Below, piece after piece: positions 2,115 to 14,525 of a DNA stretch of 14,525 nucleotides. The translations under genes and the position numbers were made by a program. The notes beneath the pieces are model-generated. The model was not told where the DNA came from and searched no databases. It worked only from the letters and a program-made list of their open reading frames with translations. The stretch spans positions 1-14,525 of the forward strand of contig JALGZO010000056.1 of assembly GCA_025774865.1 (NCBI GenBank). Direction: 5' to 3'. Numbering within the stretch: position 1 is the first letter of the stretch; every line of letters starts with the position of its first letter. Source of the stretch: a bacterium (GTDB lineage: Bacteria > ARS69).

Positions 2115-2174
2115 TCTCGAGGGCGACTCTTCCGCGGTCGGCCGAAGCGGCTGTCGTAGCGAGGCTTGGTCGCG

Positions 2175-2180
2175 TACATT
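2175..2180 (+). promoter_or_regulatory. Possible -10 box, leaderless-type start for the Fe-S/TPR gene
   Basis: TACATT lies 7 bases before ATG 2188, and there is no Shine-Dalgarno sequence before that ATG (tgcggcc). The spacing would place transcription initiation at or next to the start codon. The -35 region is poor: at 18-bp spacing it is CTGTCG. The geometry repeats that of the stronger promoter at 6907-6934, which is the main reason to list it. Confidence 0.3.
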
Positions 2181-2187
2181 TGCGGCC

Positions 2188-3996
2188 ATGAGTGAGGTGA
2201 CGGCGCGAGCGCCGCGCTGTGAGCCGGCCGCCAGCGCCCAGACCCGCGAGAACCCCTTCCCGGTCTTTCCGGGCGAGATTCGGGTGCGCGGGCCGATGAA
2301 GAAATCGCGCATGGGACGGCGTCGGGCAATCGTGCTCGGCGCCGTTCACGTTCTGATCGTTGCCCACGCGACGCACTGGCTGACGAAGGGCCGGACCCTC
2401 TCCCCCGTCGAGCCTTCGGAATCGATGCGTACCCTCGAGCTCGGCGAGGTCAACGCCGGCTTCGTCTTCTTCGTGCTCGCGATTCTCTCCACTGCGATCT
2501 TCGGCCGTTTCGTTTGCGGTTGGGCGTGTCACCTCGTCGCGCTCCAGGATCTCTGCGGCTGGATCATGAAGCGAATGGGCATCCGCCCGCGCCCGTTCCG
2601 ATCGCGCCTCCTCCTCTTTGCCCCGCTCGTGTTCGCGCTCTACATGTTCGTTTGGCCCAGCCTCAAGCGGCTCCTCCTCGCGCCAGCGGTGCGGGCGATC
2701 TCCCCGGACGCGACGCTGTTCCAGCCGGCCGGACCTTTCCCCGGGTTCTCGGATCACCTGATCACCGAGCATTTCTGGGCCACGTTTCCGACGCTCTGGG
2801 TGGCGATCCCGTTCCTCGCGATCTGCGGTTTCGCAACGGTGTACCTCCTCGGGGCGAAGGGCTTCTGTACCTACGGTTGCCCCTACGGAGGGTTCTTCGC
2901 CCCGGCGGAGAAGTTCGCGGTGGGTCGAATTCGCGTCACCGACGCGTGCGAGCAGTGCGGTCACTGCACTGCCGGGTGCACTTCCAACGTGCGCGTACAC
3001 GAGGAGGTGCGCGAGTACGGCATGGTCGTGGACCCGGGCTGCATGAAGTGCATGGACTGCGTGAGCACGTGCCCGAACGACGCGCTCTATTTCGGGTTCG
3101 GAACGCCCGCGGCGAAAAAGCCTCCGGCCAGGACCGGGCAGCGCTACCGCGTCTACGATCTGCCGCTCGGGCACGAAATCGGGCTCGCGGCCACCTTCGC
3201 GGGCGCATTCTTCGCCGTCCGGGGCGTTTACGATCGCGTGCCGCTTCTGATGGCGATCGGGGTTGCGGGGTGCGTCGCGTTCCTGGCGTGGCTCGCAATT
3301 CGCACGCTGCGCGAGTCCAGCACCTCTCTGCAGAACCTGACCTTGAAATCCGAGGGGCGGCTGAGTGCCGCCGGCGGGACCTTCCTGGCCGTGTGCACCC
3401 TCGTCTTCGTTCTCGTCGTGCAGTCGGGGTTCGTACAGGCACACCGCGCGCGCGCCGAGGCGTGGGATCGTGCCGTTCGCGTCCCGGCCGAAGTCGCGTT
3501 CCGAGAGGAGCAGCCCGAGATCCCGGCCCCGATCCTGGACGCGGCGGACCGCGCGGCCGCCCACTACGAGCGTGCGGATCGAATCGGGGCGGGCGGCTGG
3601 GGCCTCCTCGAGACCCCGGAGGTCGTCGTGCGCCGCGCGTGGATCGCGCTCGTGCGAGGGCGGCCCGACGAGGCGGCCGGGCACATCCGTCGCGTCATCG
3701 CCGCCGGTCACGCCGACCGGCAAGCGCGGTTCGACCTCGCGCGGGTCGTCGAGCTCGGCGGGGATCTCGACGAAGCGGCCGCCCTCTGGCGCGAACTCCT
3801 GGCCGCGGATCCGGCGGACGCGGCGGCGCACCGCGAGCTCGCGCGAGTACTCGAGCGGGCGGGCGACCCGGAGGGAGCGGTCGCGGCCCTCATCGTGGTG
3901 GTGAACCTCGATCCCGGGGACGGGGCGGCGCGGCTTCGACTCGCACAGCTCCTGGAAGACCTCGGCCGGCCGAGCGAGGCCGCTCGCTACCGATGA
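2188..3996 (+). CDS. NapH/NosR-like membrane [4Fe-4S] protein with C-terminal TPR domain
   Basis: 602 residues. Several membrane helices (near 48-65, 90-108, 140-160, 200-222, then three between about 328 and 425) surround the cysteine motifs. CGWACH (C110, C114) and CTYGCP (C226, C230) correspond to the loop cysteine pairs of NapH/NosR/CcoG-type quinol-linked electron-transfer proteins; the first pair has His where CGWxCP is usual. Two ferredoxin motifs follow: C254, C257, C260, C264 and C285, C288, C291, C295 (CMKCMDC, then CP). After the last helix, residues about 492-602 form three TPR-like helix pairs. The likely role is electron transfer between the quinone pool or membrane and an unknown partner, with the TPR tail as a docking site. 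The partner is not in the window. ATG 2188 is chosen because the N-terminal soluble segment reads well, although it has no SD. Its end nearly touches the convergent gene. Confidence 0.78.
   Translation: MSEVTARAPRCEPAASAQTRENPFPVFPGEIRVRGPMKKSRMGRRRAIVLGAVHVLIVAHATHWLTKGRTLSPVEPSESMRTLELGEVNAGFVFFVLAILSTAIFGRFVCGWACHLVALQDLCGWIMKRMGIRPRPFRSRLLLFAPLVFALYMFVWPSLKRLLLAPAVRAISPDATLFQPAGPFPGFSDHLITEHFWATFPTLWVAIPFLAICGFATVYLLGAKGFCTYGCPYGGFFAPAEKFAVGRIRVTDACEQCGHCTAGCTSNVRVHEEVREYGMVVDPGCMKCMDCVSTCPNDALYFGFGTPAAKKPPARTGQRYRVYDLPLGHEIGLAATFAGAFFAVRGVYDRVPLLMAIGVAGCVAFLAWLAIRTLRESSTSLQNLTLKSEGRLSAAGGTFLAVCTLVFVLVVQSGFVQAHRARAEAWDRAVRVPAEVAFREEQPEIPAPILDAADRAAAHYERADRIGAGGWGLLETPEVVVRRAWIALVRGRPDEAAGHIRRVIAAGHADRQARFDLARVVELGGDLDEAAALWRELLAADPADAAAHRELARVLERAGDPEGAVAALIVVVNLDPGDGAARLRLAQLLEDLGRPSEAARYR
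3961..3974. repeat. 14-bp perfect palindrome at a convergent gene junction
   Basis: Bases 3961-3974 (CTCGGCCGGCCGAG) are an exact palindrome inside the last codons of the Fe-S/TPR gene, 22 bases before its stop. It could fold as a 5-bp stem with a CCGG loop in RNA from either strand. No U-tract follows, so it is not a classical intrinsic terminator. Because only 4 bases separate the two convergent stops, any terminator here must lie within coding sequence. Chance is possible at this GC content. Confidence 0.35.
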
Positions 3997-4000
3997 GGGG

Positions 4001-5986
4001 CTAGCCCGACTCCCGCATCTCCGCGAGCCAGCGCCGGACCTCGTCCGCGCGCGGCCCCGTTCCTTCTCGCTCCAGAAAACCGCGAAACGCGGCCCGGGCC
4101 GGCGCGAGCTCGCCGCGCGCGCGATGGAGCACGCCGAGTTGAAAATAGGCCGCCGCGAAGTCGGGCTGAGCCTTCACCACCTCGCGAAACGCGATCATCG
4201 CCGGCTCCGGCCTCTGCTGTCGTAGGTGGCAGAGCCCGAGGTTGAACCACGCCCCGGCGTGATCCCGCTTCTGAGCGACGGCTTTCTCGAACGCGCGGAC
4301 CGCTGCGTCGTACTCGTTTGCGCGGAACCGCGCGACGCCGAGGCCGTGCCACGCGTCGGCGAGCTTCGGATTCAGCTCCAGCGCGCGCTCGAAGTGGCGC
4401 CGCGCCTCGGCGTCTCGGCCCGCGACCAGATGCAGCTCGCCCGCGGTGAGCCAGTGCCGCGGATTGTCGGGCGACGATTCGATCGCGTGCTCGAAAGCGT
4501 CGAGCGCCAGCTCGGGGCGCTGCATCCGCCGGTAGTGGCTGCCGATCGACTCCCACCCATAGGTGCGCCCATGTACCGACATCGGGCAACTCGACAGGAG
4601 TCGCACGAACCGGGTCTCGGCGCGCTCGGCGTCGGCGTTCAGCGCAAGCCACGCCGCGGCGTGTAGCGCGGCTGCACCGACGACCAGAACCGCCGCGCTG
4701 GCGAGGCGGCGAGGATCGGGAACCCAGCGGCCCAGCGCATCCGCCGCCCACCCCAGAAGCAGCAAGCCCGCGAACGACAACGCGTCCCAGTCGCGAAACG
4801 TCCCGATCTCCGGGTTCGCCACGAACGTGAAGAGCAGCGGGAACGCGGCGGCCACCCCGAGAAAGAGCGAGCGGCGAGTCCGGCGCGCGCCGCGTCGAAC
4901 GACCGACACCGCCAGCAACGCGGCCGGGGCGACGAGCAGGTGCTGGTTCAGGACGTCGAAGAGGTGCGCCGGCGACAAGGCGCGGTAAGCCGCGCGGAAC
5001 CCGGGATCACCGAGCCACGGGAGACGGTGGATGTCCTTCGGCTCACCGAGGTAGCCGATCAAGTCGAAGCCGACCGCGAAGAAGAGCGTCCCCGCTACTC
5101 CGACGATCAGGCCGAGCGACACGGCGACAGCTCCCGCCGCCGCGCCGATCGAATCTCCTCGCCAGCGAATGCGCCCGTCCTCGTCGACCCGTGCGGCGGC
5201 GTGCACGACCACCGCAGGCAACAGCGTCACGGTCATCAGGTGCAGCGGAAGCAGAAGCCCCGCGAGCACCGCCGCGCCCCGGGGCGGCCGCTCGACTCGC
5301 AGCTCGCCGAGAGACACCCAGATCCACAGGAGCACGAACGTCATCAACCACGAGTACACCTCGGCGTACCCGGCGAAGAGCGGCAGGTACCCGGCCGACA
5401 CGAGGAGCGCGAGCGCCACACTCTTCTGCGTGCGAGTGTCGCCGAGCCGGCGCGCGACGGGTACCACGAGCAGCAGGTAGATCGCACCGGCCCCCGAGCT
5501 GAACACGAGAAACGTGGTCTCCGGCGACTCCCAGAATCGCTGCCCGGTCTCGTGCAGGGTCTGCAACCCCCAGTAGCTCAGTGGGGCGTGGTCGTTGGCC
5601 CACCCGACCTCGGAGAAGCGGAGGTCGTACGCGATCACGATCATCAAGTCGTTGAGCAGGAGCTGGCCGTCGCCGAGGAGCGGCACGGCCGAGCGCTGGG
5701 CGATGAACAGGGCGGCGCCGACGGCGGCGAGCAGGACCGCGAACGTGGCCGCGGCCCGGGGGCGCCCCCAGGGGTCGAGGAACGCCGGAATGCGTTCGAG
5801 CCCGGCGATCACGCCCCGACGCACCGCCGGCACGAAGAGCAGCGCGGCGAGCACCGCGAACGCGGTCCGACCCGCGGCACCGTGAAACGCCAACGCGTCC
5901 ACGCCCCACGCACAAGCCGGCCAACCGGCCGCCACTACCAGGTGCGAGAGAAGAAAGACGCCCGCGACGACGGTGAGGAGGACCAT
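4001..5986 (-). CDS. Multi-spanning GT-C-like membrane protein with five C-terminal TPRs
   Basis: 661 residues. Residues 1 to about 455 hold roughly ten or more hydrophobic helices. An early extracytoplasmic loop carries LLGDGQLLLND (D106), the type of acidic loop seen in GT-C glycosyltransferases. A conserved-looking NPEIGTFRDWD motif (391-401) lies before a later helix; similar NP-x-G-x-RDWD motifs recur in large TPR membrane proteins of uncharacterised function. Residues 473 to about 645 are five TPR units in 34-residue register (repeating W/Y...LG...A...F...L...P). By analogy with TMTC-type proteins it may be a membrane glycosyltransferase or a scaffold; neither is shown. The start at 5986 is the first Met before the first helix, with no clear SD. 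It lies 51 bases downstream of the dehydrogenase gene on the same strand and could be co-transcribed with it. Confidence 0.7.
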   Translation of the reverse strand: MVLLTVVAGVFLLSHLVVAAGWPACAWGVDALAFHGAAGRTAFAVLAALLFVPAVRRGVIAGLERIPAFLDPWGRPRAAATFAVLLAAVGAALFIAQRSAVPLLGDGQLLLNDLMIVIAYDLRFSEVGWANDHAPLSYWGLQTLHETGQRFWESPETTFLVFSSGAGAIYLLLVVPVARRLGDTRTQKSVALALLVSAGYLPLFAGYAEVYSWLMTFVLLWIWVSLGELRVERPPRGAAVLAGLLLPLHLMTVTLLPAVVVHAAARVDEDGRIRWRGDSIGAAAGAVAVSLGLIVGVAGTLFFAVGFDLIGYLGEPKDIHRLPWLGDPGFRAAYRALSPAHLFDVLNQHLLVAPAALLAVSVVRRGARRTRRSLFLGVAAAFPLLFTFVANPEIGTFRDWDALSFAGLLLLGWAADALGRWVPDPRRLASAAVLVVGAAALHAAAWLALNADAERAETRFVRLLSSCPMSVHGRTYGWESIGSHYRRMQRPELALDAFEHAIESSPDNPRHWLTAGELHLVAGRDAEARRHFERALELNPKLADAWHGLGVARFRANEYDAAVRAFEKAVAQKRDHAGAWFNLGLCHLRQQRPEPAMIAFREVVKAQPDFAAAYFQLGVLHRARGELAPARAAFRGFLEREGTGPRADEVRRWLAEMRESG

Positions 5987-6037: not shown

Positions 6038-6898
6038 TCACTTCCAGCGATAGAAGCCCCCGCCCGACTTCTTGCCGAGCTTGCCTTCCTTCACCATGCG
6101 CTCGAGGATCTCCGGCGGGCGGAATCGAGCTCCCTCGAGGTGACGGTCGAGGTACCGCGCGATGTCGAGGCGAACGTCGAGGCCGACGAGATCGGTCAAT
6201 TTCAAAGGACCGACCGGGTGCCGGTAGCCGAGCTCCATCGCCCGGTCGATGTCCTCGGCCGACGCCACCCCCTGCTCCACCATCCGCATCGCCTCGAGCC
6301 CGATGACGAGGCCGAGCCGACTCGTCGCGAAACCAGGTGAGTCGGTGACCGTAATCACCTCACGCCCCATCCGCTCGGCGACCGCGCGACCGGCGGCGAG
6401 GGTCTCGTCCGACGTCTGCTCCGCCCGAACGATCTCCAGGAGCTTCAATACGTACGGCGGATTGAAGAAGTGCATGCCGAGAACACGCTCGGGCCGAGCG
6501 GCCGCCCGCGCGATCTCGGAGATCGACAACGACGACGTGTTCGTCGCGAGAATCGCCGCCTCGGGGGCAAGGGCGGAGACGTCACGAAAGAGCGACGTCT
6601 TGAGGTCCATCCGCTCGGGGGCAGCCTCGATGACGAGTCCGGCGTCTCCAACGGCTGCTTCCAGATCCGTGGTCGGGTCGACACGACCGAGCGCGGCCTC
6701 GGCCTCCTCGGCGGAAACTTTCCCTCGTTCGACGCCCTGGGCCAGGTTGGCGCGGATTCGCGAGACGCCGCCCTCGACCAGCGACGACTCCAGGTCGTAC
6801 AGAGCCGTCCGGAACCCCGACTGGGCCGCCACCTGCGCGATGCCGTGGCCCATGGTTCCGGCCCCGAGCACTGCGATCCGTTTCACGTTCGTCGTCAT
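6038..6898 (-). CDS. 3-hydroxyacyl-CoA (3-hydroxybutyryl-CoA) dehydrogenase
   Basis: 286 residues, the usual length for a single-function enzyme (Hbd/PaaH type). It oxidises 3-hydroxyacyl-CoA with NAD. The Rossmann motif GAGTMG is at 12-17, and D35 ends strand 2, as in NAD-specific enzymes. Active-site elements are NTSS (120-123), H143 in HFFNP and E155 in LLEIV. The fourth usual residue, Asn in the PGFxxNR motif, is Ser193 here (SPGFATSRLG). The C-terminal domain has GYRHPVGPLKLTDLVGLD and ends with GKKSGGGFYRWK, both family hallmarks. It is divergent from the Paa-like operon and could supply the beta-oxidation step for that pathway's dicarboxylyl-CoA product; this is inference from proximity. 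There is no SD before the start; a strong promoter lies immediately upstream. Confidence 0.92.
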   Translation of the reverse strand: MTTNVKRIAVLGAGTMGHGIAQVAAQSGFRTALYDLESSLVEGGVSRIRANLAQGVERGKVSAEEAEAALGRVDPTTDLEAAVGDAGLVIEAAPERMDLKTSLFRDVSALAPEAAILATNTSSLSISEIARAAARPERVLGMHFFNPPYVLKLLEIVRAEQTSDETLAAGRAVAERMGREVITVTDSPGFATSRLGLVIGLEAMRMVEQGVASAEDIDRAMELGYRHPVGPLKLTDLVGLDVRLDIARYLDRHLEGARFRPPEILERMVKEGKLGKKSGGGFYRWK

Positions 6899-7189: not shown

Positions 7190-8674
7190 ATGGCTGAGGT
7201 TGCAAGTGCGAGCATGACGAAGATGTACGTCAAGGGGCAGTGGGTCGAGGCGCAGAGCGGTGAGACTCAAGAAGTCCGTAGTCCACACGACGGCTCCGTC
7301 GTCGACACCGTTCCCCGCGGCTCGCGGGACGACGCTCGGGCCGCGATCCGGGCCGCGGAGGACGCGTTCCCCGAGTGGGCCGACACCGCCGCCGACGAGC
7401 GCGCCCGGCTGATCCTCGCGGGGGTCGAGAAGGTCAAGGAGAAGCAGAAGGACCTGGCGAAGGTGCTCTCCGCCGAGCAAGGCAAGCCGGTCTTCGAGGC
7501 CATGGGGGAGATTCACCACTTCCTGCACGGCATGACGTTCTACGCCGGTCTCGCCAGCAAGATCCGGGGAGCGCAAGTACCTCTTCCCCCGGACATGGGC
7601 AAACACAGTTACGGATTGGTTCTCAAGCGGCCGGTCGGCGTATGCGGGGCAATCGTCCCGTGGAACTTCCCGATCACGCTCATGGGTACGAAGATCGGTC
7701 CCGCGCTCATCGCGGGAAACACGGTGATCGTCAAGCCCGCGAGCTCGACACCGCTGACGTCGCTCCAGATCATCGGCCTTCTGAACGAAGCGGGTCTGCC
7801 GGCCGGCGTGCTGAACTGTGTCACCGGGCCGGGTCGCGAGGTCGGTGAGGAGCTTCTGGAGAATCCGGTCGTGCGCCGCATCGCGTTCACCGGCGAGTCG
7901 GGAACGGGACGTCGCGTCATGGAGGTCGCCGGTCCGCAGTTCAAGCGCATCACGTTGGAGCTCGGCGGTTCGGATCCGATGATCGTCATGCCCGACGCAG
8001 ATCTCCGCAAGGCGGTCTCGGGGGCGATGATCGGACGCTTCTGGAACTGCGGGCAGGCGTGTCTCGCGGTGAAGCGTCTCTATCTCCACGAGGAGATCCA
8101 CGATGAATTCCTCGAGGCGCTGCTCAAGAAGGTCGGAAGCTACGAGCTCGGCGATCCCGCCACGCGCCCGGAGAAGCCCTTCGTGCGCATGGGTCCGCTG
8201 CACACGGCCGAGCAGCGCGAAGAGATCGAGAGCCAGCTCGCCGACGCCACGAGCAAGGGCGCCGAGGTTCTCATCGGCGGAAGCCGTCCGGACGATCCGG
8301 CGCTGGGGAGCGGTCATTACTTCCACCCCGCCGTCGTCGCGAATGTGTCGCATCACTCGCGTCTCGTTCAGGAAGAGGTCTTCGGTCCGGTGCTCCCCGT
8401 CTTCAAGGTGAAGGACCTCGACGAGGCGATCGTGCTCGCGAACGACAACCAGTACGGGCTCGGCAGCTCGATCTGGACGCAGAACCTTACCTGGTCGAAC
8501 CAAGCGATTCGCGAGATCCAAGCCGGCGTCACGTGGGTCAACCAGATTCATTACGGGTACGACGAGCTGCCGTTCGGCGGCGTCAAGGCGTCGGGAATCG
8601 GACACGAGCACGGACCCGAGGCCGTGGACTACTACCAGGAGACCAAGGGCGCCGTCATCGGCGGCCTCGCCTGA
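7190..8674 (+). CDS. NAD(P)-dependent aldehyde dehydrogenase 1
   Basis: 494 residues, full length for the ALDH superfamily. Catalytic residues are in place: N159 in the PWNF motif, K182 in VKPAS, general base E257 in LELGGSD and nucleophile C291 in CGQACLA. The 34-residue gap from Glu to Cys is normal. The reaction is aldehyde to carboxylate with NAD(P). ATG 7190 has AGGAG at 7177-7181, 8 bases upstream; Met9 at 7214 has only a weak GAGG too far away. It is the first gene of the operon, 25 bases before the crotonase gene. There is no MaoC-type hydratase domain, so it is not PaaZ. It could oxidise a semialdehyde formed after ring opening, or an aldehyde that feeds the pathway. It resembles the second ALDH at the far end of the operon. 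Confidence 0.92.
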   Translation: MAEVASASMTKMYVKGQWVEAQSGETQEVRSPHDGSVVDTVPRGSRDDARAAIRAAEDAFPEWADTAADERARLILAGVEKVKEKQKDLAKVLSAEQGKPVFEAMGEIHHFLHGMTFYAGLASKIRGAQVPLPPDMGKHSYGLVLKRPVGVCGAIVPWNFPITLMGTKIGPALIAGNTVIVKPASSTPLTSLQIIGLLNEAGLPAGVLNCVTGPGREVGEELLENPVVRRIAFTGESGTGRRVMEVAGPQFKRITLELGGSDPMIVMPDADLRKAVSGAMIGRFWNCGQACLAVKRLYLHEEIHDEFLEALLKKVGSYELGDPATRPEKPFVRMGPLHTAEQREEIESQLADATSKGAEVLIGGSRPDDPALGSGHYFHPAVVANVSHHSRLVQEEVFGPVLPVFKVKDLDEAIVLANDNQYGLGSSIWTQNLTWSNQAIREIQAGVTWVNQIHYGYDELPFGGVKASGIGHEHGPEAVDYYQETKGAVIGGLA

Positions 8675-8699
8675 CGGAAGAAGGAAGGAGAGCGAACCC

Positions 8700-9482
8700 A
8701 TGTCGGACCCACGTGTGACGGCATCGTTCGACGGCGCCGTCGGAATCATCACCCTCAACCACCCGAAGGCGAACAGCTACGATCTCTCGTTCATGGAGGA
8801 CCTGGACGCGGCCATCGACGCGATGATCCAGAACGAGTCGGTCCGGGTGGTCGTCATGAGGTCGGGCCTGGAGAAGTTCTTTTCCGCCGGTGCGGACATC
8901 AAGGCGTTCCAGGCGAACAGCACCGAAGGCAACATGAAGATGATCCGTTTCGCGCACAACGCGCTGCGCAAGATGGCGAACTCCCCCAAGGTGTTCGTCG
9001 CGGCGATCGGTGGATTCGCGCTCGGCGGCGGACTCGAGATGGCCCTCGCGTGTGACCTCCGCTTCGCTGGAGACGGCGACTACAAGGTCGGGCTGCCGGA
9101 AGTGACGCTGGGGCTCCTACCCGGCAACGGAGGGACTCAGCGGCTCCCCCGCCTCATCGGTTGCAACGCCGCCCTCGCCCTGATGATCACGGGAGAGATG
9201 ATCGGCCCCAAGCGGGCCCACGAGCTCGGCCTCGTCGATCGCCTTTGTCCGCAGGACTCGTACCTCGACGACACGCTGGCGTACGCGCGGAAGTTGGCAT
9301 CCGGAGCCACGCTGGCCATAGGTCGAATCAAACAGGCCGTGTACGAAGGAATGGAAGTCTCTATGGACGAGGCACTGGCGTTGGAGCGTGATCTGATGGC
9401 GCCGCTCTTCGACACCGAAGACGCCAAGGAAGGCATCGCGGCGTTCGCCGAGAAACGCCAGCCGACGTACACGGGACGGTAG
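8700..9482 (+). CDS. Enoyl-CoA hydratase (crotonase family)
   Basis: 260 residues, standard crotonase length. The oxyanion-hole segment is FFSAGADIKAF (60-70). Both catalytic glutamates of true hydratases are present: E113 in GGGLEMALACD and E133 in LPEVTLGLLPGNGGTQRL, 20 residues apart as in rat mitochondrial hydratase. This supports water addition to a 2-enoyl-CoA, a PaaF-like role in the beta-oxidation part of a Paa-type pathway. The C-terminal EGIAAFAEKRQPTY is also typical. ATG 8700 is preceded by AAGGAG at 8685-8690, 9 bases away. It lies 15 bases before paaA in the same operon. Confidence 0.92.
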   Translation: MSDPRVTASFDGAVGIITLNHPKANSYDLSFMEDLDAAIDAMIQNESVRVVVMRSGLEKFFSAGADIKAFQANSTEGNMKMIRFAHNALRKMANSPKVFVAAIGGFALGGGLEMALACDLRFAGDGDYKVGLPEVTLGLLPGNGGTQRLPRLIGCNAALALMITGEMIGPKRAHELGLVDRLCPQDSYLDDTLAYARKLASGATLAIGRIKQAVYEGMEVSMDEALALERDLMAPLFDTEDAKEGIAAFAEKRQPTYTGR

Positions 9483-9497
9483 CCGAGGAGGGGGACG

Positions 9498-10466
9498 ATG
9501 GCGCTGATCACGGAAGAAGAGGTCGTCGGGCGGCTCGGCGCGGGCAGAATGGTCGAGTCGATCGACCACATGTCGGAGAAGTACCTGAAGGGAATCCAGC
9601 GGATCCTGACGGTGTCCGCCGACACGGAGCTCGTCTCGGCGCCCGCCTACAACTTCGCCGCGAAGGACGCCCCGACCGTCAACGCTTACATTTCTGCCAT
9701 GGGGATCATTCAGGACGAACTGGGACACGCGCACATCGCGTATCGCCTCATGGAGGATCTCGGCTTCGACAAAGAGCAGCTGATCTTCGAGCGCGATCCG
9801 AACAGCTTCAAGTACCCTTACGCGTTCGACGTGCCGCTCGAGACCTGGGTCGAACTGGCGGTGGCCAACGCGCTCTACGATCGCGCGGGCTTCGTTCTTC
9901 TGTCCGACGTGTTTCAACACACCACGTTCGCTCCGTGGAAGCGCGCTCTCGTGAAGGTCGACAAGGAGGAGAACTTCCACCTCCGCCACGGCGAGACCTG
10001 GATGAAGAAGATCAACCAGTCCGCCGAGGGACACGACAAGCTGCAGCGCGCCGTGGACTGGATGCTGCCGCTCACGCTCGAATGGTTCGGGCTCCCCGAC
10101 AGCATGAAGACGCAGAAGGTGCAGCTCGAGTACGGGTTCAAGGGCCAGAGCAACGACCAGCTCCGCCAGACCTGGATGTCGACGGCGATTCCGTTTCTCG
10201 AATCGCTGAACATCGGCGTACCGGTCCACCGGGACGAGCGGACGCAAGCGTACGTGATCGATTACCCGTTCCCGTCGGAGTTCGATCCGGAAGAAAAGCG
10301 GTGGCTGTTCGATGAGGGGCCGATCGAATGGCTCGACGACGATTCCGGGCGACCCAGCGTCATGAAACGATGGCGCGGGCGCGGCCCGATGAACGACGAG
10401 TTCGTCGAGATCCTGCAGCGAGGTCACCGCCAGGTCGTCGACTTGCTCGTCCGCGAGAAGCAATGA
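9498..10466 (+). CDS. paaA: Phenylacetyl-CoA epoxidase-like catalytic subunit PaaA
   Basis: 322 residues (E. coli PaaA is about 309). It is the catalytic di-iron subunit of the CoA-ester ring epoxidase, which uses O2 and electrons from a reductase. Likely iron ligands are visible: E44, E74 and H77 in QDELGH, D128 in YDRAG, and E158 and H161 in KEENFH. The flanks follow E. coli PaaA closely: an APT motif before the second helix, KYPYAFDVP against KYSSIFNYP, a FAPWKRALVK segment against YGPYARAMVK, and LRQTW-IPFLESLNIGVP against LRQRF-VPQVEMLGMTVP. It has a strong SD (AGGAGG 9486-9491, 6 bases before ATG). The stop overlaps the next start (ATGA). The substrate is assumed from family and is not proven; the rest of the complex here is unusual. 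Confidence 0.9.
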   Translation: MALITEEEVVGRLGAGRMVESIDHMSEKYLKGIQRILTVSADTELVSAPAYNFAAKDAPTVNAYISAMGIIQDELGHAHIAYRLMEDLGFDKEQLIFERDPNSFKYPYAFDVPLETWVELAVANALYDRAGFVLLSDVFQHTTFAPWKRALVKVDKEENFHLRHGETWMKKINQSAEGHDKLQRAVDWMLPLTLEWFGLPDSMKTQKVQLEYGFKGQSNDQLRQTWMSTAIPFLESLNIGVPVHRDERTQAYVIDYPFPSEFDPEEKRWLFDEGPIEWLDDDSGRPSVMKRWRGRGPMNDEFVEILQRGHRQVVDLLVREKQ

Positions 10467-10777
10467 CCGTGGAGGAGCGCCTGCTCGAAGCGTTGCACGA
10501 CGTCGAAGACGCGGAACTGCCCTTGGACGTCGTCGACCTGGGTCTCATCTACGGGATTCGGTATCGTGAGGGCGACGGTCACGTGGACGTCGACATGACA
10601 TTCACCGCGATGGGCTGCCCCGCCATGGATTACATGGTCCACGACGTGCGGGAGCGGCTCCTTCGAGAGGCCGAGGTCGCGAGCGTCCAGGTCACGGTCG
10701 TATGGGACCCGCCGTGGGATCAGACTCGGCTCACCTCGAGGGGCTCGGCGGCGCTCGCAACGTGGGGAATCGTGTGA
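10463..10777 (+). CDS. paaD: PaaD N-terminal half: stand-alone DUF59/MIP18 protein
   Basis: 104 residues. It matches the first two thirds of PaaD: VEDAELPLDVVDLGLIYGI (the DPExP-VVDLG signature, with D16 and E18), MTFTAMGCPAMDYM with the conserved Cys52 of DUF59/SufT-type proteins, then VVWDPPWDQTRLT and a closing GSAALATWGIV. In E. coli PaaD (about 165 residues) this domain continues into a zinc ribbon; here a TGA stops it right after the WGIV point. The zinc-ribbon part is a separate gene at 11987. PaaD is thought to help iron or Fe-S assembly for the epoxidase or its reductase. ATGA overlap with paaA upstream and a 1-base overlap (TGATG) with the next gene imply coupled translation. Confidence 0.88.
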   Translation: MTVEERLLEALHDVEDAELPLDVVDLGLIYGIRYREGDGHVDVDMTFTAMGCPAMDYMVHDVRERLLREAEVASVQVTVVWDPPWDQTRLTSRGSAALATWGIV

Positions 10778-10998
10778 TGACCATTCGGGATCGAAACGAA
10801 GTGAAACCGAGCGGCACCGTTTACGACGTGTTCGCACGCACGCGTGACGAAGACCGCGTGCATCAGGTCGGCGACGTCATCGCGCCGACGTCCGGCCTCG
10901 CGCGCGCGTACGCGTACCAGATGTACCAGGAGAGCCCTTGGGTCGAGATGGTCGTGGCTCCACGGGCGGCCATCGTCACCGTCGTCGATAAGACCTAG
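10777..10998 (+). CDS. paaB: PaaB-like small subunit, copy 1
   Basis: 73 residues from ATG 10777, which shares one base with the paaD TGA; GTG 10774 in frame is an alternative. GGGGA at 10764-10768 is 8 bases upstream. The pattern YDVFART-x-HQVGDVIAP, an Ala/Tyr-rich helix (ARAYAYQMY), then PWVEMVVAPRAAIVTV parallels PaaB (YEVFVR-x-HVGS-x-A, helix, W-V-V-x-I). E. coli PaaB is about 95 residues. PaaB bridges two PaaA-PaaC dimers, so this is likely a structural subunit of the oxygenase. Too short for an enzyme. The PaaB call rests on fold pattern and gene position and is less sure than those of PaaA and PaaD. Confidence 0.72.
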   Translation: MTIRDRNEVKPSGTVYDVFARTRDEDRVHQVGDVIAPTSGLARAYAYQMYQESPWVEMVVAPRAAIVTVVDKT

Positions 10999-11008
10999 GC
11001 GGATCATC

Positions 11009-11197
11009 ATGAACGCAACGTTCGTAGTGTTCGCGAGGCGGAAGTCCCAGGAGCCGCTGACGAAAATCGGAACCGTCACGGTGAAGCAGGGGGCGTCCGT
11101 CGAGGAGTCGGTGAGCAAAGAGCACGGCGAGGACTGGATCGAGCTCGTGGCCATCCCCGAAACGGCGATGGAGTGGGCGATCGGAGGCGACGAATGA
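11009..11197 (+). CDS. PaaB-like small subunit, copy 2
   Basis: 62 residues from ATG 11009, 10 bases after copy 1, with a weak SD-like AGGCGGA (10997-11003). It has the same skeleton as copy 1: FVVFARRK against YDVFART, then IGTVTV against VGDVIA, a short helix, and DWIELVAIPETAM against PWVEMVVAPRAAI. The helix and the tail are shorter. The two are clearly different sequences, so this is an old duplication. It may form an asymmetric bridge with copy 1 in the PaaA/PaaC complex. The stop overlaps the next start by ATGA. An unrelated small regulatory component cannot be excluded. Confidence 0.62.
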   Translation: MNATFVVFARRKSQEPLTKIGTVTVKQGASVEESVSKEHGEDWIELVAIPETAMEWAIGGDE

Positions 11198-11982
11198 CTT
11201 TCATGAAGGACCGCGAGGCCGACCTCCGAGATGCTCCAGTCGCCGTCGAGCCGATCGACGTGGACGAGTTCCCGCCCGAGGCGCGGGAGTCGATCCTCGG
11301 AATCCTCGTCATGCTCGGTGACAACAAGTATCAGCTCGGGCGTCGCTACGGCGAGTGGGCCACGTCCGGTCCCACGCTCGAGGCCTCGGTGGCCGCTGCG
11401 TCCATGACCTCGGACGAGATGGGACACGCACGAAGCCTCTATCCCCTGCTCCGGAAATTCCCCGGAGCGCCGCCGGAGCTCAAGAAGGAAGACGATCGCA
11501 CCGCGTTCCATAACGTGTCGTTCCTCGACACGCCGTTCCTTCAGTGGACCGATCTCATCGCGACCGCGGCGCTCTTCGACCGAGCGCTGTCCGTGCTCGT
11601 CGAGGGGCTCCGCGATTCGTCCTACGGTCCTTTCCGGCACCGCGCCGCGAAGATCCTGCAGGAGGAGCGCTACCACGAGCTCTACGCGAACGGCTGGGTC
11701 GAGACGCTGGCGCAGGAGGAAGGAACTCGAATCGCGCTGAAGGAGAGCATGAACCGCATCTGGACCGAGACGCTGACCTGGTTCGGCCCCGACGATGACC
11801 GCGTTCTCGGAATCGCAGCGGAGCAGCGTATCGTCGACGTGACCGGGCCCGAGCTCCGGGAGCGATTCGTGTCGGGCGTGCAGCGCGTCGTCGAGTCGAT
11901 CCCCGGGATGGGCTTCCCGGCGAGCGCTCCGCTTCCCTGGGATCGGTGGGTCGCGGCGGACCGCCGACTGCGACCGGAGTGA
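11194..11982 (+). CDS. paaC: PaaC-like di-iron-fold subunit with retained metal ligands
   Basis: 262 residues (E. coli PaaC is about 248). ATG 11194 overlaps the upstream TGA, with GGAGG at 11183-11187, 6 bases before it. The N-terminal segment VMLGDNKYQLGRRYGEW is the PaaC signature (LGDN-x-LGQRLxEW). In E. coli PaaC the metal sites have decayed (LLGQ, EARYH). Here E75 and H78 in DEMGHAR, D129 in FDRAL, and E158 and H161 in EERYH are all present, at nearly the same positions as in the paaA product. The first-helix ligand Glu is replaced by the D43-N44 of GDN. The tail (WFGPDDDR, then LRERF and IPGMGFP) is closer to PaaA, and the C-terminal HTE motif of PaaC is absent. It may be structural, or a second metal-binding subunit. 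Confidence 0.82.
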   Translation: MTFMKDREADLRDAPVAVEPIDVDEFPPEARESILGILVMLGDNKYQLGRRYGEWATSGPTLEASVAAASMTSDEMGHARSLYPLLRKFPGAPPELKKEDDRTAFHNVSFLDTPFLQWTDLIATAALFDRALSVLVEGLRDSSYGPFRHRAAKILQEERYHELYANGWVETLAQEEGTRIALKESMNRIWTETLTWFGPDDDRVLGIAAEQRIVDVTGPELRERFVSGVQRVVESIPGMGFPASAPLPWDRWVAADRRLRPE

Positions 11983-11986
11983 AGAG

Positions 11987-12205
11987 ATGAGCACCGGCTC
12001 CGTGCGTCGGCGGTGGACGGCCGAGGGCGGGGCGGCGCCGCGCTGCCCTTGGTGCGGGTCGGAGCAGACGGAGCGGAGCGCCGTCTTCGGACCCTTCCAC
12101 ATGTCGGAGAGCTACTCGTGCCTCGACTGCCACAGCCCTTTTTCACGAATCAAGTGGAGACGGGAGCCTCCGCCGACGGGAACCGGGGCCGGGCACCCGG
12201 AATGA
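11987..12205 (+). CDS. PaaD C-terminal half: stand-alone zinc-ribbon protein
   Basis: 72 residues. C20, C23, C45 and C48 form a CxxC-x21-CxxC zinc ribbon: CPWCGSEQTE, VFGPF, then YSCLDCHSPFSRIKW. This is the layout of the PaaD C-terminal domain (CPxCGSxxTE, FG, YxCxxCxEPFxxFK). PaaD's usual extra Cys after FGST is missing here (FGPFHMSES). The DUF59 part of PaaD is a separate gene at 10463, with three genes between. ATG 11987 lies 4 bases after the paaC stop, with GGAG at 11976-11979, and its TGA overlaps the next ATG. It most likely acts in trans with the DUF59 protein in maturing the oxygenase. Small generic zinc ribbons exist elsewhere, but position and motif order make the PaaD origin likely. 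Confidence 0.78.
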   Translation: MSTGSVRRRWTAEGGAAPRCPWCGSEQTERSAVFGPFHMSESYSCLDCHSPFSRIKWRREPPPTGTGAGHPE

Positions 12206-12984
12206 CGGAAAGCCCCCTCCTCGTCGAGGTTCGCAACGCGGTTGCGACCGTCACCCTCAACCGCCCGCGAGAGCTCAACGCGATCGACAACGATATGCGT
12301 GCCGCGTTCCGCGAACTGGCGGACCGACTCCCGTTCGACTCGGAGATCCGGGTCGTGGTGTTCACCGGAGCCGGGCGCGCGTTCTCAGCGGGCGGCAACG
12401 TGAAACAGTTCGAACGGGAGTGGAACCCGGCCGAGTTCCGGGCGCGCAGTCACAAGCTCAGCCACTTCTTCGACGAGCTCGAGACGCTCGAGAAACCCGT
12501 CATCGCCGCCCTCAACGGCGTCGCCACCGGGGCCGGTCTTCAGCTCGCGCTGGCCGCCGACCTGCGCTTCGCGGCCGAGGGTGCGGAGCTCGGATTCCGT
12601 GAGCATCATCTGGGGCTCGTGCCGGGGCATGGCGGGGCTACTCGAATCGTGAAGCTCATCGGGCTGAGCCGCGCGAAGGAGCTCTACTTCGGCGGCGAGC
12701 TCGTGGACGCGGAGGAGGCGCGGCGAATCGGACTCGTGCACCGCGTGATCCCCGCGGACGCGCTGCTCGAGCAAGTTCAGGAAACAGCGGAGAAGCTGGC
12801 GAAGCGCGCACCGCTGGCCCTCGGGCTCACCAAGCGCCTCCTGAACCACGCGGCGCACGCCGACGTGCGGTCGGGAATCGAGATGGAGTCGCTTGCGCAG
12901 GTCGTGGCGCTCGAGACCGCGGACCACCAGGAAGGCGTCGCGGCTTTCCGGGAGAAGCGCCGCCCGCGCTTCCGCGGGGAGTGA
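12202..12984 (+). CDS. Crotonase-family enoyl-CoA isomerase-like protein (PaaG-like role)
   Basis: 260 residues. It has the crotonase oxyanion motif AFSAGGNVKQF (60-70) and PGHGGATR. The first hydratase glutamate is replaced by Gln114 (GAGLQLALAAD), while the second is kept (E134 in FREHHLGLVPG). Loss of the first Glu with retention of the second is the pattern of enoyl-CoA isomerases rather than hydratases, so a double-bond or epoxide/oxepin isomerisation, as done by PaaG, is a fair inference. E. coli PaaG itself uses an Asp at another position, so this is not a simple orthologue. ATG 12202 overlaps the zinc-ribbon stop; there is no good SD, so translation is probably coupled. It sits 2 bases before the PaaY-like gene. 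Confidence 0.82.
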   Translation: MTESPLLVEVRNAVATVTLNRPRELNAIDNDMRAAFRELADRLPFDSEIRVVVFTGAGRAFSAGGNVKQFEREWNPAEFRARSHKLSHFFDELETLEKPVIAALNGVATGAGLQLALAADLRFAAEGAELGFREHHLGLVPGHGGATRIVKLIGLSRAKELYFGGELVDAEEARRIGLVHRVIPADALLEQVQETAEKLAKRAPLALGLTKRLLNHAAHADVRSGIEMESLAQVVALETADHQEGVAAFREKRRPRFRGE

Positions 12985-12986
12985 CG

Positions 12987-13520
12987 ATGGCCCGGATCAT
13001 CACGGTGCGGGGTTGGACACCGCAGATCCACCCGACGGCCTTCGTCGCCCCGAACGCCACCCTGATCGGCAACGTCGTCGTCGAGGCGCACGCGAACGTC
13101 TGGTTCGGCGTGGTCCTGCGAGCGGACCAGAACCTCATTCAGATCGGAGAGAAGGCGAGCGTCCAGGACAACGCGGTGATGCACTGCAACGAGGAGAACG
13201 CAACCGTCATCGGGAGAAGCGCGACGATCGGCCACTGTGCCGTCCTCGAGGGTTGCGAGATCCAGGATTTTGCGCTGATCGGCATGAACGCGAGCGTGCT
13301 GGACGGGGCCACCGTCGAATCGGGAGCGCTGGTCGCGGCCGGCAGCGTCGTGAAGGAGCGAGACACGATTCCGGAGTGGACCCTCGCGGGAGGCGTCCCG
13401 GCCGTGGCGAAGAAGCAGCTCGCGGGGACCGCGATCGACCACGTCAAGGGAGCGGCCGAGCACTACCAGACACTCATGGCCCTCTACGAACATCTCGGCG
13501 ACCCCGTACCCAGAGAGTAG
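12987..13520 (+). CDS. paaY: PaaY-like gamma-carbonic-anhydrase-family hexapeptide protein
   Basis: 177 residues. A left-handed beta-helix of hexapeptide repeats (about residues 13-140: NATLIGNVVVEAHANVW, then IGEKASVQDNAVMHC, and so on) precedes a C-terminal alpha helix (AIDHVKGAAEHYQTLMALY). Gamma-class enzymes bind zinc through three His; here H66 (VMH) and H83 (IGH) are kept, but the third is Glu88 (AVLEGC, usually VLHGC). PaaY is a thioesterase that removes dead-end CoA esters in phenylacetate degradation, which fits this operon. ATG 12987 is preferred because GGGGAG at 12976-12981 is 5 bases away; GTG 12981, overlapping the upstream stop, would add two residues. A carbonic anhydrase or another acyl-CoA role is possible. 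Confidence 0.82.
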   Translation: MARIITVRGWTPQIHPTAFVAPNATLIGNVVVEAHANVWFGVVLRADQNLIQIGEKASVQDNAVMHCNEENATVIGRSATIGHCAVLEGCEIQDFALIGMNASVLDGATVESGALVAAGSVVKERDTIPEWTLAGGVPAVAKKQLAGTAIDHVKGAAEHYQTLMALYEHLGDPVPRE

Positions 13521-13529
13521 GAGACGGAG

Positions 13530-14525
13530 ATGACGTTAGCGAGCTCGCAGGAGACGACCATGATCCAGCACTTCATCGGTGGTGAGTCCGTGGGGAGCGT
13601 CGGCGGCGATCAACGCGAGATCCGGAATCCGGCGAACGGCGAGCTCGTGGCGACGGTGCCGGAAGGCACCGAGGAAGACGTCGACCGTGCAGTAAACGGC
13701 GCCCACGACGCGTTCCCCGGCTGGTGGGACACGCCGGCGGCGACCCGAGGCAAGGTCCTGTTCGAATGCGCGGACGCCGTCCTCGCGAACCTGGAGGAGC
13801 TGGCCGCGCTGCTCACGGCCGAACAGGGGAAGCCCTTGGCCGAATCCCGCACGGAGATCCGCCGCTTCGCGCACACGCTCGAACATTACGCTGGGCTCGC
13901 GAAAAACCTCCGCGGGGGTTACGTCCCGGACTTGGACGAGAAGCCCCACCGTCACGGACTCATCATCAAGCGGCCGCTCGGCGTCTGCGGCGCGATCATT
14001 CCCTGGAACTTCCCGCTCTCGCTCTTAGGCAACAAGCTCGCGCCGGCCCTCGTCGCCGGCAACACGATGGTCGTGAAGCCGGCCCAGACGACCCCGCTCA
14101 CGTCGACGCGGATCATCGGAATCCTCCACGAGGCGGGCGTTCCCGCGCACGTGGTCAACACGGTCCTCGGCCGCGGTTCGGTGGTGGGCGAGGCACTCAT
14201 CATGCACGAGCTCATCGCAAAGGTCGGCTTCACCGGGGCGACCGAGACGGGGCGGCGCATCATGGCGGGCGCGTCGGAAACGATCAAGCGCGTCACCCTC
14301 GAGCTCGGCGGCTCCGACCCGATGATTGTCTGCGCCGATGCGGATATCGACCGCGCCGTCAGCGCCGCGTCCGTCGGCCGCTTCTTCAACTGCGGACAAG
14401 CCTGTCTCGCGATCAAGCGGATCTATCTCTTCGAGGAGATCGCGGACGAGTTCACCGACAAGCTACTCGGCAAGGTCGCGAAGCTCACCGTCGGACCGGG
14501 CACGGAAGACGGAGTCCGGCTGGGC
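13530..14525 (+). CDS. NAD(P)-dependent aldehyde dehydrogenase 2 (3' partial)
   Basis: The frame is open to the window end; 332 residues are visible. Catalytic residues are N160 (IPWNF), K183 (VVKPA), E258 (LELGGSD) and C292 (CGQACLA). It is strongly similar to the first ALDH of this operon: the KRPLGVCGAIIPWNFP, TLELGGSDPMIV and NCGQACLAIKR blocks are near identical between the two, which suggests paralogues. Two starts are possible, ATG 13530 and ATG 13560, each with AGGAG exactly 6 bases upstream (13519-13523 and 13549-13553); they differ by ten residues. The gene is 9 bases after paaY. The end of the protein, and whether a MaoC domain is fused there, lies outside the window. Confidence 0.9.
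   Translation, partial: MTLASSQETTMIQHFIGGESVGSVGGDQREIRNPANGELVATVPEGTEEDVDRAVNGAHDAFPGWWDTPAATRGKVLFECADAVLANLEELAALLTAEQGKPLAESRTEIRRFAHTLEHYAGLAKNLRGGYVPDLDEKPHRHGLIIKRPLGVCGAIIPWNFPLSLLGNKLAPALVAGNTMVVKPAQTTPLTSTRIIGILHEAGVPAHVVNTVLGRGSVVGEALIMHELIAKVGFTGATETGRRIMAGASETIKRVTLELGGSDPMIVCADADIDRAVSAASVGRFFNCGQACLAIKRIYLFEEIADEFTDKLLGKVAKLTVGPGTEDGVRLG

What the first reader, a model, noticed from the sequence alone, without database searches (positions are those of the whole stretch)
7190..14525. Non-canonical Paa-type epoxidase operon, possibly for a different CoA substrate
Eleven genes with gaps of 25 bases or less, many of them ATGA overlaps, combine PaaA/B/B'/C/D-N/D-C with two crotonases, PaaY and two ALDHs. 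Missing from the window are PaaE (reductase), PaaK (CoA ligase), PaaJ and the ALDH-MaoC fusion PaaZ. The zinc ribbon, doubled PaaB and metal-retaining PaaC all depart from the known complex together. This could be a distinct lineage of CoA-ester epoxidase with its own ring-opening route.
Basis: partly seen in the sequence, partly recalled or inferred. Interest (0 to 1): 0.7.

Follow-up and report, generated by a model that had tools for sequence, protein, structure and literature searches.

The report
PaaA-type epoxidase operon, likely for benzoyl-CoA
An operon that databases would label phenylacetate degradation belongs to a separate, widespread branch of ring-attacking enzymes that most likely oxidises benzoyl-CoA instead, a route that I did not find described in the literature I could search.

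Summary
The eleven-gene operon is real (7190-14525). Its PaaA is a distant PaaA relative: about 25% identity to E. coli PaaA, and 117 bits against a PaaA cut-off of 280. It sits in a clade separate from verified phenylacetyl-CoA epoxidases, found in Gemmatimonadota, UBP7, Rubrobacter, Solirubrobacterales, Thermus plasmids, KSB1 and haloarchaea. All clade members checked keep the six di-iron ligands but lack the 'lysine bridge' (E49 to Tyr, K68 to Ile/Val). In Rubrobacter, Thermus, Solirubrobacterales, Salsipaludibacter and haloarchaea a benzoate-CoA-ligase-family gene lies with the epoxidase or its satellite genes; the bacterial ones share the window's two aldehyde dehydrogenases and crotonases. 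PaaK, PaaE and BoxB are each absent over cut-off from 14 genomes tested. My best reading is a PaaA-type benzoyl-CoA (or simple benzoyl-CoA-like) epoxidase pathway, inferred and not shown. An anthranilate-CoA alternative was tested and largely explained away. No paper describing it was found in the library held.

The parts
6041..6898 (-). 3-hydroxyacyl-CoA dehydrogenase (PaaH/Hbd-like), divergently transcribed; related HAD genes sit in related operons
   Evidence: NCBIfam PRK09260 320 bits; 46-48% identical HAD in the UBP7/SP4379 operons and HAD in Gemmatimonadota operons
7190..8674 (+). ALDH type I, aldehyde dehydrogenase paired with ECH1
   Evidence: PF00171 529 bits; 52-69% identical orthologues, next to ECH1 in Rubrobacter, Thermus, Salsipaludibacter, Solirubrobacterales
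8700..9482 (+). ECH1, crotonase with both catalytic Glu
   Evidence: PF00378; active-site alignment
9498..10466 (+). PaaA-type di-iron catalytic subunit; ligands E44, E74, H77, D128, E158, H161; lysine bridge absent
   Evidence: PF05138 188 bits; TIGR02156 117 bits against cut-off 280; residue table; AF2 model pLDDT 92, best matches E. coli PaaA Z 31.7 and BoxB Z 20.3
10463..10777 (+). PaaD N-terminal part (DUF59/MIP18-like maturation factor) as a separate gene
   Evidence: PF01883 56 bits; NF041868 haloarchaeal PaaD 89 bits, under cut-off
10777..10998 (+). PaaB1, short PaaB homologue
   Evidence: hhalign to canonical PaaB 96.8%
11009..11197 (+). PaaB2, second short PaaB-like protein
   Evidence: hhalign to PaaB1 family 98.3%; direct match to canonical PaaB only 42%
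11194..11982 (+). PaaC-type structural subunit with five of six di-iron ligand positions, Lys at the first
   Evidence: PF05138 141 bits; TIGR02158 100.6 bits against cut-off 133; residue table
11987..12205 (+). PaaD C-terminal zinc ribbon as a separate gene
   Evidence: PF23451 Zn_ribbon_PaaD 43.9 bits; NF041869 and TIGR02159
12202..12984 (+). ECH2, crotonase that has lost the first catalytic Glu (Gln) and keeps the second
   Evidence: PF00378; alignment with Rubrobacter, Thermus and UBP7 orthologues
12987..13520 (+). PaaY / gamma-carbonic-anhydrase-like hexapeptide protein
   Evidence: NF050158 136 bits, TIGR02287 PaaY 122 bits, both under cut-off
13530..14525 (+). ALDH type II, cut by the contig end; orthologues sit directly upstream of the benzoate-CoA ligase in Thermus, Rubrobacter and Salsipaludibacter
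   Evidence: 56-66% identity to type-II orthologues; gene order

Best explanation
The operon encodes an aerobic aryl-CoA ring-epoxidation pathway built on a separate clade of PaaA-type di-iron epoxidases, most likely acting on benzoyl-CoA (or a simple benzoyl-CoA analogue) rather than phenylacetyl-CoA. Proposed steps: a benzoate-CoA-ligase-family enzyme (adjacent in relatives, not seen on this contig) makes the CoA ester. PaaA with PaaC, PaaB1 and PaaB2 uses O2 at a six-ligand di-iron site to epoxidise the ring. The split PaaD pair matures or serves the metal site. ECH2 and ECH1 isomerise and hydrolytically open the epoxide/oxepin. ALDH-I oxidises the resulting semialdehyde. HAD and a 3-oxoadipyl-CoA-type thiolase finish by beta-oxidation. 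PaaY removes dead-end CoA esters. SHOWN by sequence: the gene set, clade, ligand set, lost lysine bridge, ligase co-localisation in relatives. INFERRED: substrate, epoxide chemistry, order of ring-opening steps. The electron donor is unknown.
For: Separate clade from canonical PaaA. All clade PaaA examined keep E42/E72/H75/D126/E155/H158 (E. coli numbering) but have Tyr at E49 and Ile/Val at K68, whereas the eight canonical PaaA keep E49/K68 (lysine bridge described in PMC4498308). A TIGR02262 benzoate-CoA ligase family gene lies with the epoxidase or its satellites in Rubrobacter (587-596 bits, cut-off 375), Thermus (591), Salsipaludibacter (540), a Solirubrobacterales MAG (517) and Haloarcula (381). 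The Thermus ligase's best PDB match is benzoate-CoA ligase 2V7B (505 bits), and the bacterial epoxidase-linked ligases share an AYG[LM]G stretch with 2V7B. A pcaF-like thiolase is adjacent in Rubrobacter, Thermus and Salsipaludibacter. No PaaK over cut-off in 14 genomes, no PaaE in 14, no BoxB in 14. Around the first Fe ligand the clade reads [S/Q]-x-x-T-E-x-x-S; BoxB has Gln116, Thr119, Glu120, Ser123 at the same offsets (PMC5489048), while E. coli-type PaaA reads H-x-x-S-E-x-x-G. Salsipaludibacter carries both this epoxidase and a canonical PaaA (352 bits), so the roles need not overlap.
Against: The window's own genome shows no epoxidase-type benzoate-CoA ligase and no pcaF-like thiolase. 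The contig ends where they could lie, but the nearest complete relatives (UBP7, SP4379) also lack a TIGR02262 ligase at 1e-100. The Gemmatimonadota branch has no adjacent ligase, and some members carry the core alone among unrelated genes. A Nitriliruptorales locus has a PaaK-like ligase nearby. TIGR02262 is a subfamily with several aryl substrates. F108, which orients phenylacetyl-CoA in E. coli PaaA, is kept. No biochemistry exists.
Confidence: 0.6

Rival explanations
1. It is a divergent phenylacetyl-CoA epoxidase pathway: same substrate and chemistry as E. coli Paa, with the reductase and ligase encoded elsewhere or replaced.
For: PaaA, PaaB, PaaC, PaaD, PaaY, PaaF/G-like and PaaH-like genes are all present; the closest solved fold is E. 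coli PaaA (Z 31.7); F108, which orients the phenylacetyl group in E. coli PaaA, is conserved; a PaaK-like ligase lies near the Nitriliruptorales locus.
Against: Separate clade; lysine bridge lost in every clade member checked; PaaK over cut-off in 0 of 14 genomes; benzoate-CoA ligase family in place of PaaK in five lineages; one genome holds both types.
Confidence: 0.15
2. The substrate is 2-aminobenzoyl-CoA (anthraniloyl-CoA) or another substituted benzoyl-CoA, fed by tryptophan breakdown or lignin aromatics.
For: The only TIGR02262 ligase found in the window's genome lies beside tryptophan 2,3-dioxygenase and a kynureninase-like gene (contig C707); an anthranilate-CoA ligase is the second-best PDB match of the Thermus ligase.
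Against: C707 is self-contained: it carries its own flavin 2-aminobenzoyl-CoA/salicylyl-CoA-type monooxygenase (PRK08255, 1143 bits over a cut-off of 1078) plus RidA-like, ECH and acyl-CoA dehydrogenase genes. The same cluster recurs in HR33 and G015. Kyn-linked ligases are a separate group, 37-42% identical to the Thermus, Rubrobacter, Salsipaludibacter and L029 ligases, with a GYATG stretch instead. The genomes of R. marinus, L015 and L010 have the epoxidase and no tryptophan dioxygenase hit.
Confidence: 0.15
3. The complex oxidises another acyl-CoA (heteroaromatic such as furoyl- or thiophene-carboxyl-CoA, or a non-aromatic acyl-CoA), and substrate differs between branches of the clade.
For: Neighbourhoods differ by branch: Gemmatimonadota have ALDH-III, GDPD, symporter and amidohydrolase and no ligase; haloarchaea have CoA-transferase and UbiD genes; some have only the core.
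Against: Within the window's own branch the satellite set is uniform and, in most members, tied to a benzoate-type ligase.
Confidence: 0.1

Closest known systems
Phenylacetyl-CoA epoxidase PaaABC(D)E (E. coli; PDB 3PW1, 4IIT)
   Same: Same fold (Z 31.7, 26% identity), same six di-iron ligands, PaaA, PaaB, PaaC and PaaD homologues in one operon, PaaY-like protein.
   Different: Separate clade; no lysine bridge; PaaD split; second PaaB-like protein; no PaaE, PaaK or PaaZ genes; crotonase/ALDH satellites differ.
Benzoyl-CoA epoxidase BoxAB (Azoarcus evansii; PDB 3PM5, 3PER)
   Same: Proposed substrate; fold (Z 20.3); Thr and Ser (and Gln in the Gemmatimonadota branch) around the first Fe ligand at the offsets of BoxB T119, S123 and Q116; pathway plan ligase, epoxidase, ALDH, beta-oxidation.
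   Different: BoxB needs no structural subunit and is about 470 aa; no BoxB HMM match over cut-off; BoxA and BoxC not seen in the loci.
Haloarchaeal canonical Paa (Haloferax lucentense L122, Halorubrum L124)
   Same: Split PaaD with separate zinc ribbon (annotated 'PaaE'); amidohydrolase gene nearby; ALDH-III type dehydrogenase 47% identical to the Gemmatimonadota one.
   Different: PaaA is in the canonical clade with the lysine bridge; PaaC keeps all six ligands.
2-Aminobenzoyl-CoA monooxygenase pathway (contig C707 of the same genome)
   Same: Uses a TIGR02262 ligase and an aryl-CoA oxygenase.
   Different: Flavoprotein oxygenase, unrelated to di-iron PaaA; separate self-contained cluster.

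Membership tests
PaaA_PaaC di-iron oxygenase family (PF05138) | Profile match over gathering score by the catalytic and structural subunits | tested here: met
   PaaA 188 bits, PaaC 141 bits, cut-off 28.5
Phenylacetyl-CoA epoxidase PaaABCDE | PaaA over the equivalog cut-off TIGR02156 (280 bits) | tested here: not met
   117 bits
Phenylacetyl-CoA epoxidase PaaABCDE | Six di-iron ligands E42, E72, H75, D126, E155, H158 in PaaA | tested here: met
Phenylacetyl-CoA epoxidase PaaABCDE | Lysine bridge K68 with E49, E72 and D126 | tested here: not met
   E49 is Tyr and K68 is Ile/Val throughout the clade
Phenylacetyl-CoA epoxidase PaaABCDE | PaaE reductase and PaaK ligase encoded | tested here: not met
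   No TIGR02160 or TIGR02155 match over cut-off in the own genome or the 13 others tested; the own genome is about 93% complete
Phenylacetyl-CoA epoxidase PaaABCDE | PaaA groups with verified PaaA in a tree | tested here: not met
   Separate branches, 87 and 100 SH-aLRT
Benzoyl-CoA epoxidase BoxB | Match to TIGR03225 over cut-off (499 bits) | tested here: not met
   No match in the own genome; 0 of 14 over cut-off
Benzoyl-CoA epoxidation (function, not BoxB membership) | Benzoate-CoA-ligase-family gene in the operon | tested here: inconclusive
   Met in Rubrobacter, Thermus, haloarchaea and others; not seen on the window's contig, which ends inside ALDH-II
Benzoyl-CoA epoxidation (function, not BoxB membership) | Turnover of benzoyl-CoA | not testable with these tools
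   Needs a purified complex and its reductase

The most novel reading that the evidence does not exclude
A further aerobic aryl-CoA epoxidation system, beside PaaABCE and BoxAB: a lysine-bridge-free PaaA clade spread over several bacterial phyla and haloarchaea that epoxidises benzoyl-CoA and uses its own crotonase/ALDH ring-opening set, at present annotated as phenylacetate degradation.
Probability: 0.5. Interest if true: 0.75.

Novelty: new variant of a known kind. Interest (0 to 1): 0.6.

Why it matters
PaaA and PaaC were proposed in 2026 as robust genomic markers of phenylacetate degradation (PMC13186573). If this clade acts on benzoyl-CoA, genomes of Thermus, Rubrobacter, Gemmatimonadota and haloarchaea are being assigned the wrong substrate, and aerobic benzoate use through benzoyl-CoA occurs where BoxAB is absent. 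It would also show that the lysine bridge, suggested to take part in electron transfer in PaaA, is dispensable in this fold, which directed mutants can test. Thermus thermophilus plasmids give a culturable species in which to test it.

Tried and rejected
First attempts at family scans failed on off-by-one coordinates. Order- and phylum-level searches gave only five genomes, all of one family, so near relatives could not show what lies downstream of 14525; the relative with 79% identity (L003) is truncated in PaaC. Anthranilate hypothesis from C707: followed and set aside after its own flavin monooxygenase was found. C785 ligase fragment: encodes the C-terminus of an acyl-CoA synthetase with no pathway genes seen beside it. 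Amidohydrolase of UBP7: no homologue found in the own genome or its four relatives (a search without positive control), and its closest PDB hit is uncharacterised, so its role was left open. A residue-level BoxB alignment could not be printed, so the BoxB comparison rests on residue numbers from PMC5489048. Literature searches found no description of this clade, but only open-licence papers are held.
Full report
What is in the window. The window is a complete 14,525-base contig (C56) of a 4.7 Mb, 785-contig genome bin that is 92.65% complete and 8.3% contaminated. Only five species of its phylum are held, all in one family. The operon has eleven genes in one direction with gaps of 25 bases or less, three ATGA overlaps and one TGATG overlap. 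A divergently transcribed 3-hydroxyacyl-CoA dehydrogenase at 6041-6898 belongs to the same theme. The contig is unlikely to be a foreign contaminant, because another genome of the same family (G015) holds a 79% identical PaaA in the same gene order.

Identity of the parts. PaaA and PaaC match PF05138; PaaD-N matches PF01883; the small gene after PaaC matches PF23451, the PaaD zinc ribbon. PaaA, PaaC and the PaaD parts all fall under the equivalog cut-offs of the canonical proteins. PaaB1 and PaaB2 have no single-sequence Pfam hit, but profile comparison links PaaB1 to canonical PaaB (96.8%) and PaaB2 to PaaB1 (98.3%). The zinc ribbon is therefore ordinary PaaD sequence; the split is unusual, with a precedent in canonical haloarchaeal operons.

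A separate clade. A scan of species-representative genomes returned 33 loci, from Gemmatimonadota, UBP7, SP4379, Rubrobacter, Solirubrobacterales, Nitriliruptoria, KSB1 and Eisenbacteria. Plasmid records added Thermus thermophilus (60% identity) and haloarchaea (49-53%). PaaA, PaaD-N and PaaC occur in this order and on one strand in every locus long enough to show it. In a PaaA plus PaaC tree the window-type PaaA and the canonical PaaA fall on separate branches (87 and 100), and likewise for PaaC (70, weak, and 98).

Active site. In E. coli numbering, the clade PaaA sequences examined keep all six iron ligands but have Tyr at E49 and Ile or Val at K68. The eight canonical PaaA sequences, including the canonical copy of Salsipaludibacter, keep E49 and K68. 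E49 and K68 form the lysine bridge of PaaA, suggested to act in electron transfer (PMC4498308). Around the first ligand the clade reads [S/Q]-x-x-T-E-x-x-S. BoxB has Gln116, Thr119, Glu120 and Ser123 at the same offsets, residues reported to hold or orient benzoyl-CoA (PMC5489048). E. coli-type PaaA reads H-x-x-S-E-x-x-G. The match is complete in the Gemmatimonadota/KSB1/Eisenbacteria branch (Gln) and two of three in the window's branch (Ser). This is suggestive only: by position BoxB Thr210, next to the Asp ligand, is Tyr in the window, and F108, which orients phenylacetyl-CoA in E. coli PaaA, is kept. The AlphaFold model (pLDDT 92) is closest to E. coli PaaA (Z 31.7), then PaaC, the Sulfolobus protein SSO1313, and BoxB (Z 20.3). 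PaaC of the window keeps five of six ligand positions with Lys at the first; Rubrobacter PaaC has lost more, so a working metal site there is unlikely to be general to the clade.

Substrate. In Rubrobacter loci the epoxidase lies beside a benzoate-CoA ligase family protein (TIGR02262, 587 bits over a cut-off of 375), and, in one locus or another, a 3-oxoadipyl-CoA-type thiolase, HAD, both ALDHs and both crotonases. Two Thermus thermophilus plasmids carry PaaA, PaaD-N, PaaB1, PaaC, ECH2 and PaaY, then TetR, ECH1, ALDH-I, a branched-chain-type ABC transporter, ALDH-II and benzoate-CoA ligase; pHB5018c shows the thiolase next. Salsipaludibacter has the satellite set with the ligase on another contig, and also has a canonical PaaA (352 bits). 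Haloarchaeal loci have a TIGR02262-type ligase (381 bits, just over cut-off, and 366, just under) and a 2Fe-2S ferredoxin next to PaaA. The Thermus ligase is closest to benzoate-CoA ligase 2V7B among solved structures. PaaK is absent over cut-off from 14 genomes, BoxB from 14 and PaaE from 14 genomes or records. The two ALDH orthogroups of the window are the same two found in Thermus, Rubrobacter and Salsipaludibacter, where ALDH-II sits directly before the ligase. In the window ALDH-II is the last gene before the contig ends, so ligase and thiolase could follow. However, the UBP7 and SP4379 operons, with the same arrangement, continue with other genes.

The anthranilate alternative. The only TIGR02262 ligase found in the window's genome is on contig C707 with tryptophan dioxygenase, a kynureninase-like gene, a RidA-like gene, ECH, acyl-CoA dehydrogenase and a flavin aryl-CoA monooxygenase (PRK08255, 1143 bits over 1078). 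That cluster recurs in HR33 and G015 and explains its own ligase. Its ligases are only 37-42% identical to the Thermus, Rubrobacter and Salsipaludibacter ligases and carry a different pocket stretch. Hence anthraniloyl-CoA is not needed as the substrate of the epoxidase, although it is not excluded.

Mechanism and limits. Shown: gene set, clade, ligand pattern, co-localisation in relatives. Inferred: benzoyl-CoA (or a close analogue) is epoxidised; ECH2 (first catalytic Glu lost) and ECH1 (both Glu kept) handle isomerisation and hydrolysis; ALDH-I oxidises the semialdehyde; HAD and thiolase complete beta-oxidation. The electron donor is unknown: two Solirubrobacterales loci have an adjacent BphA4/HcaD-like ferredoxin reductase and haloarchaea an adjacent ferredoxin. 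An amidohydrolase_2 gene recurs in Rubrobacter, UBP7 and Gemmatimonadota operons and near haloarchaeal canonical paa, with unknown role; it was not found in the window's genome.

Verdict. The finding holds: a distinct, annotated-by-default lineage of PaaA-type epoxidases, most likely for benzoyl-CoA-type substrates. It is a new variant of a known kind. No paper describing it was found in the open-licence library, which is not proof that none exists.

Noticed in passing
G000 contig C707, locus L109 798-10813: Self-contained tryptophan-to-2-aminobenzoyl-CoA cluster: tryptophan dioxygenase, kynureninase-like, TIGR02262 ligase, creatininase-like, SDR, RidA-like, ECH, acyl-CoA dehydrogenase, flavin aryl-CoA monooxygenase; recurs in HR33 (L110) and G015 (L112).
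   Followed up: yes
L122 7265-8083 and L124 7473-8309 (haloarchaeal canonical PaaC): All six di-iron ligand positions are retained in canonical haloarchaeal PaaC, unlike bacterial canonical PaaC; this could be a second metal site.
   Followed up: partly
window 11194-11982 (PaaC) and clade PaaC: Lys replaces the first di-iron ligand Glu in most clade PaaC while the other five ligands often persist, as if Lys stood in for the metal.
   Followed up: no
L005 3227-4075, L007 4239-5114, L021 17924-18805, L122 3464-4339: An amidohydrolase_2 protein recurs with this epoxidase in Rubrobacter, UBP7 and Gemmatimonadota and, as a more distant homologue, with canonical paa in haloarchaea; possibly a ring-opening hydrolase.
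   Followed up: partly
L019, L020, L022, L023, L026, L006: The core PaaA/PaaD-N/PaaB1/PaaC/PaaD-C occurs alone among unrelated genes (such as gyrA, a PLP decarboxylase or IMPDH), so its role there may differ.
   Followed up: partly
L051 7950-10269 (Agrobacterium pAtCG920): A still more divergent PaaA/DUF59/small protein/PaaC set (36% identity) with an ABC transporter, CoA-transferase and a 917-aa AMP-binding protein.
   Followed up: no
window 46-5986: Upstream genes: ABC_transp_aux and DUF4340 proteins, a 4Fe-4S/TPR fusion (2188-3996) and, on the minus strand, a TPR membrane protein (4004-5986); no visible link to the operon.
   Followed up: partly
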